The notes beneath the pieces were generated by a model that saw only the letters and a program-made list of their open reading frames with translations, did no database searches and was not told the DNA's origin. From Lentibacillus halodurans (GTDB lineage: Bacteria > Bacillota > Bacilli > Bacillales > Amphibacillaceae), in NCBI RefSeq assembly GCF_900112045.1, contig NZ_FOJW01000012.1, positions 62,001 through 126,000 on the forward strand: a stretch of DNA of 64,000 nt, read 5' to 3'. A program made the position numbers and the translations under genes. Shown here one piece after another: positions 9,450 through 12,728 of this stretch; the stretch's first letter is position 1, and each line of letters opens with the position of its first letter.

Positions 9450-10382
9450 ATGAAAGAGGAAAACAACGGAACTCCAAAAAATAAGTGGAGTCGCATTTTT
9501 CGCAAGAAGTGGTTTTTCCCGGCAGTGTATTTGACGATTGCTGCGCTTCTTCTGTCATTGGTCATATGGTACCAAAACCTTGGCAACCAGATTGATGAGA
9601 CTCAGGAAGAAGAGAATACAGAGGAGTATGCACCAGTTGAACATGATGAAGATGCACAGCCTGTAGTGGATCAACAGGAAGTCATTCAAATGCCTGTTGA
9701 GAACATGGATCAAGCAGAAATCGTAACTAAATACTATGATTACAACGCAGACCAGGAAGATCAGGAGAATGCAATTGTCGTATTTAACGACCGCTATTAC
9801 CAAAGTACAGGTCTTGATATTGCATCTGCTGATGGTGAAACGTTTGATGTGTTGTCGTCATTAAGTGGAACAGTTACGGAAGTCAAAGAAGATCCGCTGC
9901 TTGGTAATGTTGTAACGTTAACACATGAAAATGATGTGACAACCCATTACGCGAGTCTTGGCGATGTTCAGGTTTCTGCCGATGAAGAGATTGAACAGGG
10001 TGATGTCATTGGAACTGCCGGCGAAAATCTTTTCGGAAAAGACAACGGAACACATCTCCATTTTGAAATTAGAAAAGATGGACAAGATGTAAATCCGGAA
10101 ACCTTTTTCAATCAGCCGTTAAGTGCTCTGGATGAGGCGTTGGCTGAAGATGAAGAAGCCGAAAACGGAAATGCGGAGTCTGAAGGTACCGAAGAAGATG
10201 CAGAATCCGGTGCCACAGAAGAGGAAAGTGCTGAATCCGATGCTACAGAAGAGGAAGGTACAGAGCCTGACGCATCTGAGGATGAGGATTCAGAGTCAGA
10301 CGAAAATGCAGATGATGCAATGGACAATGAGGAAACACCAGGTAATGATGATCAGACTGGTGGAACCGAAGAGGAAGAGTAA
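9450..10382 (+). CDS. spoIIQ: Stage II sporulation protein Q (SpoIIQ), degenerate M23/LytM protein
   Basis: Forespore membrane protein forming the SpoIIIA-SpoIIQ channel across the intermembrane space (310 residues). A short cytoplasmic N-terminus is followed by one membrane segment (residues about 21-41) and a LytM/M23 domain (about 105-215). The usual first zinc ligand is replaced: the sequence reads QSTGLDIA, serine where active peptidases have histidine, while the second motif HLHFEI is kept; the B. subtilis protein is likewise degenerate. The last 85 residues or so are an extreme acidic tail of Glu/Ser/Asp/Thr repeats (ATEEESAESDATEEEG and similar), longer than in B. subtilis. The start follows GAGGTGATGACAAT. 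Confidence 0.95.
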   Translation: MKEENNGTPKNKWSRIFRKKWFFPAVYLTIAALLLSLVIWYQNLGNQIDETQEEENTEEYAPVEHDEDAQPVVDQQEVIQMPVENMDQAEIVTKYYDYNADQEDQENAIVVFNDRYYQSTGLDIASADGETFDVLSSLSGTVTEVKEDPLLGNVVTLTHENDVTTHYASLGDVQVSADEEIEQGDVIGTAGENLFGKDNGTHLHFEIRKDGQDVNPETFFNQPLSALDEALAEDEEAENGNAESEGTEEDAESGATEEESAESDATEEEGTEPDASEDEDSESDENADDAMDNEETPGNDDQTGGTEEEE

Positions 10383-10425: not shown

Positions 10426-10457
10426 AACCCTAGTGATTTTACTAGGGTTATTTTTTT
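10426..10457 (+). terminator. Terminator after spoIIQ
   Basis: Perfect arms AACCCTAGT and ACTAGGGTT with a six-base loop, followed by ATTTTTTT. Confidence 0.9.
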
Positions 10458-10510
10458 GTCTGTTTGGCTGTTATATCTTCTACGATTAAAAATTCACTGC
10501 GAAAATTGTC

Positions 10511-10539
10511 GAAGGATTATCCTTTATTTTGTTGAAATT
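10511..10539 (+). promoter_or_regulatory. Candidate sigma-H-like promoter upstream of the AimR-family gene
   Basis: GAAGGATTA, then 11 bases, then GTTGAAATT. This fits the sigma-H pattern (RNAGGAWWW, 11-12 bases, RNNGAATWW) with one mismatch. An overlapping AT-rich stretch (TATTATATAAT) could serve sigma-A instead. Sigma-H control is known for several phr-type signalling peptide genes in B. subtilis. The assignment here is by eye only. Confidence 0.35.
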
Positions 10540-10652
10540 TGTGATATTATATAATTAAACCAATCAATTTTGCAGAATGTTTTGTTAATTGGTCACAATA
10601 TACCGGTACTATTTACCTAGTTCGAGCATTCTGATTAAGAGGGGTGTATTTC

Positions 10653-11699
10653 ATGCACTATTCCAAAGCGACACAGAAATCCGAGAAGTCGGATTTGCTC
10701 ATCAACTTATCCAATAATGATGAGTTGACATTGGAACAAGTGATGCTGGTATTGGAAAAGGAGCATGATGAGCAAACGGTCGAGCAGCTGATTCGCAAAT
10801 TTTGTCTGGAAACAACATCAGATAATACCCAAAAAAAAGGCATGGAATATTTATATATGAATGGTTACTATGATGATTTGCAGCAATCAATCATCAAAAA
10901 TAAATCGTCAAAAAACCCCTCGAATCAGAAATGGGCAGAGGTCTATCAATTGACGCTGGATCGCAAACAAAGGCGTTATTCAGATCAAGAAATCCTGAGA
11001 CATGTCAACGCTATGAAAACGGATGAACCTGAACTGAAGTGCTTGCTCGAATTTATCAAAGTCACTGTTTATTATGGCCGGGGTGAATACGGCAAATTAG
11101 GTAACATTCTGGAAAAGCAGCAATACTTATTTGAAAAAATAAATGACCACTTTCTTCTGGAATTTTTCCATGACCGTTTATATCACAATTTGTTCGTTTA
11201 TTTTCTTGTCCGCAACGAAGTAATTATGGCGCGCAAATATGCTTTTCGGGTCTTGACACGCACAACCAACTCAAAAACGAAAATCAGCCTCCACATCAAT
11301 CTCGCGCTTTCGTATATGTATGATACATATTATCAGGGCATGTATCATCTTAACGAAGCACTGAAAATCGCCAAAAAAGATGACCTGAATCGTATTGCAA
11401 ATATTATTGTACAAAATAATATTCCGTTTTTATCAGCACACTTTAAAAAAGTGGAAAACATCACATCAACAGATAAAAGTGAACAGGCTCATATCGAAAT
11501 AGCGAAAGGAAATTATTTCAAAGCAAGGGCGATTTTAAAGGAAATAGAGATTGACAGCCCTTTCAAAATGTACTATTTGGGAATGGCCAAACAGGATAAA
11601 AGCTTACTTCTCCAGTCGTACAACAATTTTATTGAAAAGCGAAGCGACTATTTCTTCAGCAGACTGCCACTAAACGCGCTTCAAAAAATGAGCGATTAG
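10653..11699 (+). CDS. AimR (arbitrium receptor) family TPR protein
   Basis: Predicted intracellular peptide-pheromone receptor (348 residues), almost wholly alpha-helical with TPR-like repeats. By eye it follows phage phi3T AimR along its length: FCLETTSDNTQKKGMEYLYM corresponds to the YCLNLDVKTKAARSALEY region, NQKWAEVYQLTLDRK to the KEYGKVYKIHRELSKG region, and the C-terminal KARAILKEIEIDSPFKMYYL and SRLPLNALQKM to the family ending. The N-terminus before this is only about 50 residues and shows no convincing helix-turn-helix, so it may act by protein contact rather than DNA binding. ATG lies eight bases after AGAGGGG; an in-frame TGA at 10632 rules out a longer start. The next gene encodes a repeat peptide, the expected partner. 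No phage genes surround it. The family is likely; the signal and target are unknown. Confidence 0.75.
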   Translation: MHYSKATQKSEKSDLLINLSNNDELTLEQVMLVLEKEHDEQTVEQLIRKFCLETTSDNTQKKGMEYLYMNGYYDDLQQSIIKNKSSKNPSNQKWAEVYQLTLDRKQRRYSDQEILRHVNAMKTDEPELKCLLEFIKVTVYYGRGEYGKLGNILEKQQYLFEKINDHFLLEFFHDRLYHNLFVYFLVRNEVIMARKYAFRVLTRTTNSKTKISLHINLALSYMYDTYYQGMYHLNEALKIAKKDDLNRIANIIVQNNIPFLSAHFKKVENITSTDKSEQAHIEIAKGNYFKARAILKEIEIDSPFKMYYLGMAKQDKSLLLQSYNNFIEKRSDYFFSRLPLNALQKMSD

Positions 11700-11795
11700 C
11701 TCTGTCATGGCGGGTGTATTCCCCGCGTATCAATTCGTTAGTTATGAAAATAGGGTCAGGCTTTAAATTTAAAGAAAATCTAAGGAGGCTAAAAT

Positions 11796-12011
11796 ATGAA
11801 AAAGTTTATCGTTACTTTGGGTGTTATGACAATGGTGTTGGCAGGTACCTTGGCATTTGATGCCGTTGATGTGGCGGACCCAGTAATGGGCGACTTGGAT
11901 TCTGATCCAGTAATGGGCGATCTGGATTTTGATCCAGTGATGGGTGACTTGGATTCTGACCCAGTAATGGGCGATCTGGATTCTGATCCGGTAATGGGCG
12001 ACCTGGATTAA
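11796..12011 (+). CDS. Secreted multi-copy signalling-peptide precursor (AimP/Phr-like)
   Basis: A 71-residue protein with a Sec-type signal (MKKFIVTLGVMTMVLAGTLA) followed by residues 28-71, which are five consecutive copies of DPVMGDLD joined by S or F. The DNA repeat is 27 bases (11877-12008); copies differ mostly at third codon positions, so the peptide unit appears to be maintained. The ribosome site AAGGAGG is excellent. Directly downstream of an AimR-family receptor, it occupies the place of aimP, whose short precursor is exported and cut to a hexapeptide that re-enters the cell. AimP precursors normally carry one signal copy; five copies are unusual. The mature peptide cannot be fixed from sequence. 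It could alternatively be a secreted repeat protein with no signalling role. Confidence 0.75.
   Translation: MKKFIVTLGVMTMVLAGTLAFDAVDVADPVMGDLDSDPVMGDLDFDPVMGDLDSDPVMGDLDSDPVMGDLD
11877..12008 (+). repeat. Tandem 27-bp coding repeat, five copies (last one partial)
   Basis: Each unit encodes DPVMGDLD plus S or F; the final copy stops after DPVMGDLD. Differences between copies are mostly synonymous (GAC/GAT, CCA/CCG, GGC/GGT, TTG/CTG); the single change of the joining residue is S to F in the second unit. Confidence 0.9.
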
Positions 12012-12443
12012 TAACAGGAAAGTTCGTTAAATAGAAAAGCCCATAGTCTGTATATTTGATTTAAATCAATACAAAAAGCCTGAACCCTATTTTCTTTTTT
12101 TATAATGATATTGTTATCATAAAAATTACTTCTTGTCCACCGCCCCGAAAGATGCAATTTTAATCATAATCCTCACTAAACGTTAATAAAATATTACAAA
12201 CCAAGCATTCAGAAAAGTCTGAGGTGAGAGCTTGTGTAGCTTCCTGTGTCCAGTCATCCAAATTTTTCACCTGATACATACAAACCTCATATGTAAAAGA
12301 GTCTTCCCTTATTTGATTCAGTGATATAAATACAGCCAGAGCTGCACAGAAGGATATGTTCAGCAGATAAGTGAACAGCATACATTGTATCACCTTGTCT
12401 CAAACCACACCTCGGAAATATCCAACTTAGGGAGGCGAACGGT
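12012..12443 (+). other. Region between the peptide gene and spoIIID, with a dyad
   Basis: It holds the right arm and T-run of the long inverted repeat, then a perfect 16-base palindrome ATGATATTGTTATCAT at 12105-12120 that could be an operator, then a possible small minus-strand gene (12160-12381). The last 40 bases lead into spoIIID with GGGAGGCGAACG. Confidence 0.5.
12160..12381 (-). CDS. Possible small membrane-anchored protein, unrecognised
   Basis: A 73-residue frame on the minus strand starting MLFTYLLNISFCAALAVFIS, which would be a membrane segment or signal, followed by a soluble acidic part with cysteines. ATG follows AAGGTGATACAATGT, an acceptable ribosome site; a GTG at 12393 is an alternative. 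I recognise no family. It lies between the signalling-peptide gene and spoIIID and points towards the peptide gene, so it could also be a chance frame. Function unknown. Confidence 0.3.
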   Translation of the reverse strand: MLFTYLLNISFCAALAVFISLNQIREDSFTYEVCMYQVKNLDDWTQEATQALTSDFSECLVCNILLTFSEDYD

Positions 12444-12728
12444 GTGCACGATTACATCAAAGAAAGGACAATCAGGATAGGAAATTATGTCGTGGAGACG
12501 AGGAAAACTGTCCGATTGATCGCAAGGGAATTTGGTGTTTCCAAAAGCACAGTCCACAAAGATTTAACAGAACGCTTGCCGGAAATAAATCCGGAACTTT
12601 ATAACCAGGTCAAGGATGTACTTAACTACCACAAATCAATTCGCCATCTTCGCGGGGGTGAAGCAACCCGCAATAAGTACAGAGAAGACAAAAGGACAGA
12701 AGATTCCACCTTCAAACCAGTAGGATAA
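12444..12728 (+). CDS. spoIIID: Stage III sporulation transcriptional regulator SpoIIID
   Basis: Mother-cell DNA-binding protein that switches genes between the sigma-E and sigma-K regulons (94 residues; the B. subtilis protein is 93). The sequence is nearly the family consensus: HDYIKERTIRIGNYVVETRK, then the helix-turn-helix TVRLIAREFGVSKSTVHKDL and the basic C-terminal helix. The start is a GTG after AGGGAGGCGAACG. The gene is followed by a terminator and then mbl, the same order as in B. subtilis. Confidence 0.97.
   Translation: MHDYIKERTIRIGNYVVETRKTVRLIAREFGVSKSTVHKDLTERLPEINPELYNQVKDVLNYHKSIRHLRGGEATRNKYREDKRTEDSTFKPVG

What the first reader, a model, noticed from the sequence alone, without database searches (positions are those of the whole stretch)
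10653..12011. Chromosomal arbitrium-like pair (AimR-family receptor plus five-copy peptide precursor) embedded among sporulation genes
Seen: an all-helical protein that follows phi3T AimR over most of its length, then an excellent ribosome site and a 71-residue protein made of a signal peptide and five copies of DPVMGDLD(S/F). Known: AimR/AimP (phages) and related plasmid or chromosomal receptors (RRNPP group) sense short peptides cut from an exported precursor. Inference: this is a cell-encoded communication system; no phage genes are near, and it sits between spoIIQ and spoIIID, so it may tune sporulation. A pheromone precursor with five tandem copies is unusual for AimP and would raise signal yield per precursor.
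Basis: partly seen in the sequence, partly recalled or inferred. Interest (0 to 1): 0.88.

Follow-up and report, generated by a model that had tools for sequence, protein, structure and literature searches.

The report
Sporulation-locus quorum-sensing receptor with peptide precursor
Salt-loving spore-forming bacteria carry, between two sporulation genes, a receptor related to the one phages use for peptide messages plus a small exported peptide gene (here with five copies of the message), and its control region suggests that the cells use it for talk about spore formation.

Summary
10653-11699 encodes an AimR-family protein (Pfam AimR 327.8 bits, cut-off 26.7) and 11796-12011 a 71-aa exported-looking precursor with five identical DPVMGDLD units. 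It is not a phage arbitrium system. The receptor lacks the N-terminal DNA-binding HTH of phage AimR. AimR-family genes occur in 127 of 159 genomes of the family; the Rap domain RapH_N in 13 of 159. A Spo0A box (TGTCGAA) lies upstream in 65 of 72 slot copies (1.15 expected), and a closely similar motif precedes spoIIE, a known Spo0A target. Most slot receptors (68 of 95) are followed by a precursor ending in DP-x-x-G-[DE]-x-[DGF]; 13 have 2-14 copies, needing at least 7 changes on the tree. Best reading: a vertically inherited, probably Spo0A-controlled host quorum-sensing system whose HTH-less receptor acts by protein contact, somewhat like Rap. Target and peptide binding are untested.

The parts
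10426..10449 (+). intrinsic terminator-like hairpin that separates spoIIQ from the receptor gene
   Evidence: 2 found on the stretch, 1.8 expected, so weak by itself; k-mers ACCCTAG/CTAGGGT recur upstream of the receptor in 11 and 15 of 72 slot copies
10500..10513 (+). 0A-box-like site: TGTCGAA at 10507-10513 with a second CGAA half-site exactly 10 bp upstream (10500-10503)
   Evidence: TGTCGAA in 65 of 72 slot copies
10542..10550 (+). extended -10 element TGATATTAT, 35 bp downstream of the start of TGTCGAA
   Evidence: an extended -10 at +35/+36 in 29 of 65 copies that have the box
10653..11699 (+). AimR-family TPR receptor without N-terminal HTH (348 aa)
11782..11788 (+). Shine-Dalgarno AAGGAGG of the peptide gene
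11796..12011 (+). pheromone precursor: signal-peptide-like N-terminus plus five DPVMGDLD units
11877..11900 (+). unit 1 DPVMGDLD
11904..11927 (+). unit 2 DPVMGDLD
11931..11954 (+). unit 3 DPVMGDLD
11958..11981 (+). unit 4 DPVMGDLD
11985..12008 (+). unit 5 DPVMGDLD, directly before the stop
9450..10382 (+). spoIIQ, upstream edge of the conserved slot
   Evidence: NF053738 333.2 bits, cut-off 250
12444..12728 (+). spoIIID, downstream edge of the conserved slot
   Evidence: TIGR02844 142 bits, cut-off 111.5

Best explanation
A host quorum-sensing pair inherited with the chromosome. Step 1 (inferred from the conserved 0A box): phosphorylated Spo0A switches on the receptor and probably the precursor behind it when cells enter stationary phase. 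Step 2 (inferred from the sequence): the precursor leaves by the Sec route and proteases release the octapeptide DPVMGDLD, five per precursor here. Step 3 (inferred from family knowledge): the peptide re-enters through an oligopeptide permease and binds the TPR groove of the receptor. Step 4 (inferred from the missing HTH): the receptor does not bind DNA as phage AimR does, but holds or releases a protein partner in the sporulation circuit, as Rap proteins do, so that commitment to sporulation is gated by cell density. Shown by computation: the gene pair, the predicted fold, the missing HTH, the slot, the box, the peptide consensus. Not shown: expression, peptide release, binding, the partner and the sign of the effect.
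For: AimR profiles and fold: (16 PDB hits at E<=0.001, all AimR chains; best TM 0.82-0.83; Rap chains follow at TM about 0.5). HTH absent: a median of 21 residues before the core in 95 slot receptors against 44 in SPbeta AimR; the HTH of SPbeta AimR is residues 1-59 (PMC6458997 passages). Slot. Tree: 94 of 95 slot receptors in one group of 100 rows (SH-aLRT 97); a branch of 1.03 (SH-aLRT 100) sets all 95 slot receptors and 31 other copies apart from SPbeta AimR and the other phage-type rows (quick method). 0A box: 65 of 72 copies (1.75 expected); controls in the same loci spoIIQ 12 of 70, mbl 8 of 68, spoIID 0 of 68, spoIIID 0 of 69, flgX 0 of 63 (each 0.85-1.3 expected). Upstream of spoIIE, 27 of 30 relatives have GTCGAA, 20 of these 27 with the same CGATT behind it; TGTCGAA as 0A core and spoIIE as a Spo0A target with near-consensus boxes: PMC3485338 passages. 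Peptide consensus over 55 distinct units (one of them, DPHLGSNQ, a chance hit): D, P and G at positions 1, 2, 5 were required by the search pattern; D/E at 6 in 39, I/L/V/M at 7 in 46, D/G/F at 8 in 46.
Against: 27 of 95 slot receptors have no recognisable precursor, about half of them in Oceanobacillus-type genomes, although most of these keep the box. 14 of 95 lack an exact box. spoIIQ and mbl upstream regions also have more TGTCGAA than expected (12 of 70 and 8 of 68). spoIIGA, also a Spo0A target, has TGTCGAA in 0 of 19, and spoIIE has the full TGTCGAA in 0 of 30. Only 3 of 159 genomes lack Spo0A; these 3 lack the receptor, but so do 29 that have Spo0A. By alignment (18% identity, uncertain) the residues N202, N206 and R228 that hold AimP in SPbeta AimR are not kept, while E300, D360, F276 and F362 are. 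No partner has been identified, and in one genus (g16) Rap and the receptor occur together in 10 genomes.
Confidence: 0.62

Rival explanations
1. A true arbitrium system or the remnant of a lost prophage, kept as a phage-derived lysogeny switch.
For: AimR profile hits far over cut-offs; HTH-length AimR genes exist elsewhere in the order, and in phages and plasmids.
Against: No HTH; same slot between sporulation genes in many genera; matches in viral contigs 5 at 26% identity, in phage records 5 at about 22%, in plasmids 3; no RGA peptide.
Confidence: 0.05
2. A chromosomal receptor that eavesdrops on phage arbitrium peptides, as PMC9765709 proposes for chromosomal AimR without precursor.
For: 27 of 95 slot receptors lack a precursor, and none was seen behind the second-place receptors looked at; almost 90% of chromosomal non-prophage AimR lacked one in PMC9765709 (passages).
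Against: 68 of 95 slot receptors have their own precursor with a shared motif unlike RGA-type AimP; the anchors for the RGA end are not conserved.
Confidence: 0.12
3. The receptor still regulates transcription, through a DNA-binding partner or through the TPR domain, for example of its own operon or of spoIIID.
For: Many RRNPPA receptors regulate neighbouring genes (PMC10075063 passages); the slot lies beside spoIIID.
Against: No HTH or other extra domain in the model; residues 1-10 average pLDDT 43 and 11-20 average 59.
Confidence: 0.15
4. The small repeat protein is not a signal but a structural or ion-binding secreted protein that merely sits beside the receptor.
For: Acid-rich repeats; amplified up to 14 copies in some species.
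Against: Single unit in 55 of 68 precursors, behind a peptide receptor; the codon differences between the units here are all synonymous.
Confidence: 0.06

Closest known systems
Phage arbitrium AimR-AimP (SPbeta, phi3T)
   Same: Receptor family and TPR fold; small precursor directly downstream (SPbeta yopK-yopL).
   Different: No HTH, chromosomal sporulation slot, DPxxGDx[DGF] unit instead of an RGA-type hexapeptide, 0A box; no phage genes among the neighbours identified.
Rap-Phr
   Same: Works like it in outline: HTH-less TPR receptor plus exported-looking pheromone, tied to Spo0A and sporulation; next-best fold matches are Rap structures.
   Different: No match to the Rap N-terminal domain RapH_N (Pfam scan to E 1); precursor only weakly like a Phr family (14.6 bits, cut-off 35).
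Chromosomal AimR receptors and 'subfamily 21' of Alkalihalobacilli (PMC9765709: passages and section 7; PMC12700828: passages)
   Same: AimR relatives outside prophages, DPG-containing peptides, multi-copy precursors.
   Different: The passages seen do not describe the spoIIQ-spoIIID slot, loss of the HTH or a Spo0A box; whether the same genes are in their supplementary tables could not be checked.
AloR-AloP of Paenibacillaceae
   Same: Nine-TPR clan with AimR and DPG-type peptides (PMC12700828 passages).
   Different: Not compared by sequence here.

Membership tests
AimR receptor family (homology) | match to AimR profiles above curated cut-off | tested here: met
   PF22871 327.8 bits, cut-off 26.7; NF038310 195.5 bits, cut-off 70
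AimR receptor family (homology) | TPR-like superhelical fold of AimR | tested here: met
   Foldseek of the predicted model, TM 0.82-0.83 to AimR structures
[quoted passage not shown]
   24 residues before the core against 44 in SPbeta AimR, no HTH in the model
Arbitrium system | exported AimP-like precursor directly downstream | tested here: met
   signal-peptide-like start by sequence, export itself not tested
Arbitrium system | mature peptide of the RGA/GA type | tested here: not met
   consensus DPxxG[DE]x[DGF] against the six families named in PMC6458997
Arbitrium system | located on a phage or mobile element | tested here: not met
   conserved sporulation slot
Arbitrium system | controls lysis-lysogeny through aimX | not testable with these tools
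   no experiment possible
Rap-Phr | N-terminal three-helix bundle (RapH_N) | tested here: not met
   no RapH_N hit to E 1
Rap-Phr | acts on response regulators such as Spo0F or ComA | not testable with these tools
   target unknown
Spo0A regulon | 0A box upstream of the promoter | tested here: met
   65 of 72 copies; binding itself not tested

The most novel reading that the evidence does not exclude
The AimR family is also a host sporulation sensor: a whole bacterial family that almost lacks Rap-Phr uses an HTH-less AimR relative, switched on by Spo0A, as its own Rap-like protein-protein regulator of sporulation. Loss of the HTH would then be a second, independent invention of a protein-contact regulator in RRNPPA receptors, and phage arbitrium and host sporulation signalling would be branches of one receptor family.
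Probability: 0.35. Interest if true: 0.88.

Novelty: new variant of a known kind. Interest (0 to 1): 0.74.

Why it matters
AimR is best known as a phage receptor. Here relatives without the DNA-binding domain form a common chromosomal gene of a spore-former family, often paired with a conserved pheromone and mostly behind a Spo0A box. That would explain how bacteria in which Rap proteins are rare might sense density before sporulation, gives a ready test of where phage arbitrium came from, and supplies natural series of precursors with 1 to 14 signal copies for the open question why pheromone copies multiply.

Tried and rejected
Prophage origin: rejected by synteny, tree and the scarcity of viral matches. 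A LexA-type reading of the CGAAC motif was considered by eye only and dropped, because no inverted partner follows. Copies without precursor: short ORFs with a Shine-Dalgarno within 450 bp were listed for 26 loci; nothing convincing. Co-absence with Spo0A: only weakly informative. spoIIGA as positive control failed; spoIIE and, more weakly, spoIIAA passed. Structure search by VIA-align: library not available. A tethered receptor-peptide fold was prepared but not run. The promoter-terminator scan has no power here: promoters 10 found, 7.4 expected; terminators 2 found, 1.8 expected. One search added nothing. Genes near the second-place receptors were named by Pfam for single representatives only.

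Limits of counts: the 100 stretches were chosen by me from the longer lists (several per genus in some genera), so slot, box and peptide rates are for these and for the 80 loci, not for all 127 genomes. Many named and unnamed loci are the same genomes; searches dropped repeated receptor sequences before counting (94 and 95 left). 'Slot' means that spoIIQ or spoIIID was found in the fetched stretch. Start codons in counts are those of the longest ORF, so the N-terminal lengths are upper bounds, and a few slot ORFs (up to 77 residues) leave room for more. The HTH was not checked one by one in the 31 non-slot rows of the large branch. One search excluded L106 and two other chance DP..G hits by pattern; one search counted L106 in and left L082 out.

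Full report
What is there. The window holds an ORF at 10653-11699 (348 aa) and, 96 bp further, an ORF at 11796-12011 (71 aa) with a textbook Shine-Dalgarno. The first scores 327.8 bits against Pfam AimR (cut-off 26.7) and 195.5 against NCBIfam lysogeny_AimR (cut-off 70), and finds AimR chains among solved structures at a best E of 2.1e-10. The second begins MKKFIVTLGVMTMVLAG and carries five DPVMGDLD units at 27-bp spacing. Six of the eight codons of the unit vary between copies and every difference is synonymous; the only amino-acid change is in the linker residue (S or F). That pattern suggests selection on the peptide.

Not a phage receptor in build. An AlphaFold2 model from 79 aligned receptors has mean pLDDT 93.7 and is all helix, with residues 1-10 under 50 and no HTH. 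Its only PDB matches at E<=0.001 are 16 AimR chains, best TM 0.82-0.83; Rap chains come next at about 0.5. SPbeta AimR has its HTH in residues 1-59 (PMC6458997, passages). In my alignment SPbeta AimR has 44 residues before the conserved core and the window 24; 95 slot receptors have a median of 21 even when the longest ORF is taken, with a range of 10 to 77, so a few have room for more. By the same alignment, residues that hold the peptide in SPbeta AimR are partly kept (E300, D360, F276, F362) and partly not (N202, N206, R228); at 18% identity this is only a hint.

A fixed place in the chromosome. AimR-family genes occur in 127 of 159 genomes of the window's family, 125 over the cut-off. I fetched 100 stretches of my choice. 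With the window they hold 108 receptor copies, 72 of them in stretches with spoIIQ or spoIIID, nearly always in the order spoIID-spoIIQ-receptor-spoIIID-mbl. A scan of named genomes returned 80 loci (the best 80 of 122 confirmed), 73 in the same slot, in Lentibacillus, Virgibacillus, Oceanobacillus, Ornithinibacillus, Sediminibacillus, Aquibacillus, Paraliobacillus, Amphibacillus, Gracilibacillus and others; many of these are the same genomes as the unnamed ones, so the two counts are not independent. On a tree of 142 receptors, 94 of 95 slot receptors fall in one group of 100 rows (SH-aLRT 97), and all 95 with 31 other copies are set apart from SPbeta AimR and the other phage-type rows by a long branch (1.03, SH-aLRT 100) (quick method; the 31 were not all checked for an HTH). 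The nearest relative of the window is a Lentibacillus (75% identity), so the window is probably from a Lentibacillus (inference). Matches in viral contigs, phage records and plasmids are few and distant.

The control region. In 65 of 72 slot copies the stretch upstream of the receptor holds TGTCGAA, often as TTTGTCGAACGATT; 1.15 were expected from shuffles. Upstream of other genes of the same loci it is rarer, though spoIIQ and mbl exceed chance: spoIIQ 12 of 70, mbl 8 of 68, spoIID 0 of 68, spoIIID 0 of 69, flgX 0 of 63, each 0.85-1.3 expected. Of the 36 copies outside the slot, 5 have it. In 15 of 65 a second CGAA lies exactly 10 bp upstream, the most frequent of the offsets tested (next 8), as in the window (10500 and 10510), and an extended -10 follows at +35/+36 in 29 of 65. 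TGTCGAA is the core of the 0A box (PMC3485338, passages). As a positive control, 27 of 30 relatives have GTCGAA upstream of spoIIE, 20 of these with the same CGATT behind it, though none has the full TGTCGAA; spoIIAA has TGNCGAA in 15 of 29 against 2.9 expected; spoIIGA has TGTCGAA in 0 of 19. The pattern WTTGTCGAANNA is rare in the window's genome: 22 sites against 62 for its reversed control.

The peptide. A precursor with the motif follows 68 of 95 slot receptors. Over 55 distinct units the consensus is D-P-[DEG]-[LYH]-G-[DE]-[ILVM]-[DGF]; the first, second and fifth letters were part of the search pattern. An ORF with the motif near its stop occurs in 47 of 72 slot copies, against 0.55 in shuffles and 1 antisense. 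Comparison of arrays marks the eight-residue unit: it is nearly constant within a precursor while the linkers differ in length and letters between species. Thirteen precursors have 2 to 14 copies, and the tree needs at least 7 changes between one and several copies; the four nearest relatives of the window (L031, L032, L034, L037) have one. So the five copies look like a local amplification of a widespread signal.

Rap is nearly absent. RapH_N occurs in 13 of 159 genomes, 12 over the cut-off, 10 of them in one genus (g16) whose receptor is divergent and, in the one locus looked at (L122), has no precursor. That fits, but does not show, that this receptor does in the family what Rap does in Bacillus. 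Spo0A is present in 156 of 159; 29 genomes with Spo0A lack the receptor, so its absence is not explained by loss of Spo0A.

What is known. PMC9765709 (passages and section 7) reports AimR in non-prophage chromosomal regions, mostly without precursor, AimR in Virgibacillus, and precursors with up to six copies. PMC12700828 (passages) mentions chromosomal systems of Alkalihalobacilli inside the AimR clade of its sequence tree, and DPG peptides. PMC10075063 (passages) lists 21 new subfamilies. PMC11343458 (passages) treats tandem pheromone precursors of Rap systems. No held paper has both AimR and spoIIID, and the listings for arbitrium with halophile genera, AimR with Spo0A, AimR with Virgibacillus and helix-turn-helix, and AimR with Amphibacillaceae showed no title or abstract that describes this locus. 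Supplementary tables were not available. So the kind (RRNPPA peptide signalling) is known, and the variant (HTH-less AimR lineage, Spo0A box, sporulation slot) appears undescribed in what I could search.

Verdict. The gene pair is real and conserved far beyond chance; the arbitrium label should be replaced by 'AimR-related host quorum sensing'. Control by Spo0A is inferred from sequence, and the mechanism steps from peptide release onward are inference.

Noticed in passing
L070, L079, L087, L090, L094, L098, L105, L107, L110, L111: A second conserved chromosomal place for short AimR relatives, in most of these ten loci spermidine synthase - agmatinase - receptor - DUF1934 - argS, with no precursor seen; 7 of the 10 genomes have a slot receptor among my loci, G088 and G150 list one AimR match only, the second copy of G086 was not looked at. 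Candidate orphan listener to the slot pheromone.
   Followed up: partly
L126:5803-14307: Seven AimR-family genes in tandem, of the length that includes an HTH, in one genome of another family.
   Followed up: no
L051 (same place as L151): Precursor with two alternating unit types, DPWLGELD and DPEAGAMG, 14 DP..G units in all: possibly two signals from one precursor.
   Followed up: no
L116, L196, L208, L210 (three of them named Gracilibacillus): Short ORFs behind the receptor end in DPD[YF]GD[IV]G but seem to lack a signal peptide, which raises the question how the peptide is exported.
   Followed up: no
window 12221-12229: GAGGTGAGA, a strong Shine-Dalgarno before a small ORF upstream of spoIIID, in 47 of 72 slot copies (0.1 expected); resembles usd of Bacillus subtilis, a gene upstream of spoIIID needed for its translation (PMC4474612 passages).
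   Followed up: partly
L080:5899-9882 (L163, Oceanobacillus senegalensis): The slot receptor is duplicated in tandem with identical protein copies, with spoIIQ-like sequence in between.
   Followed up: no
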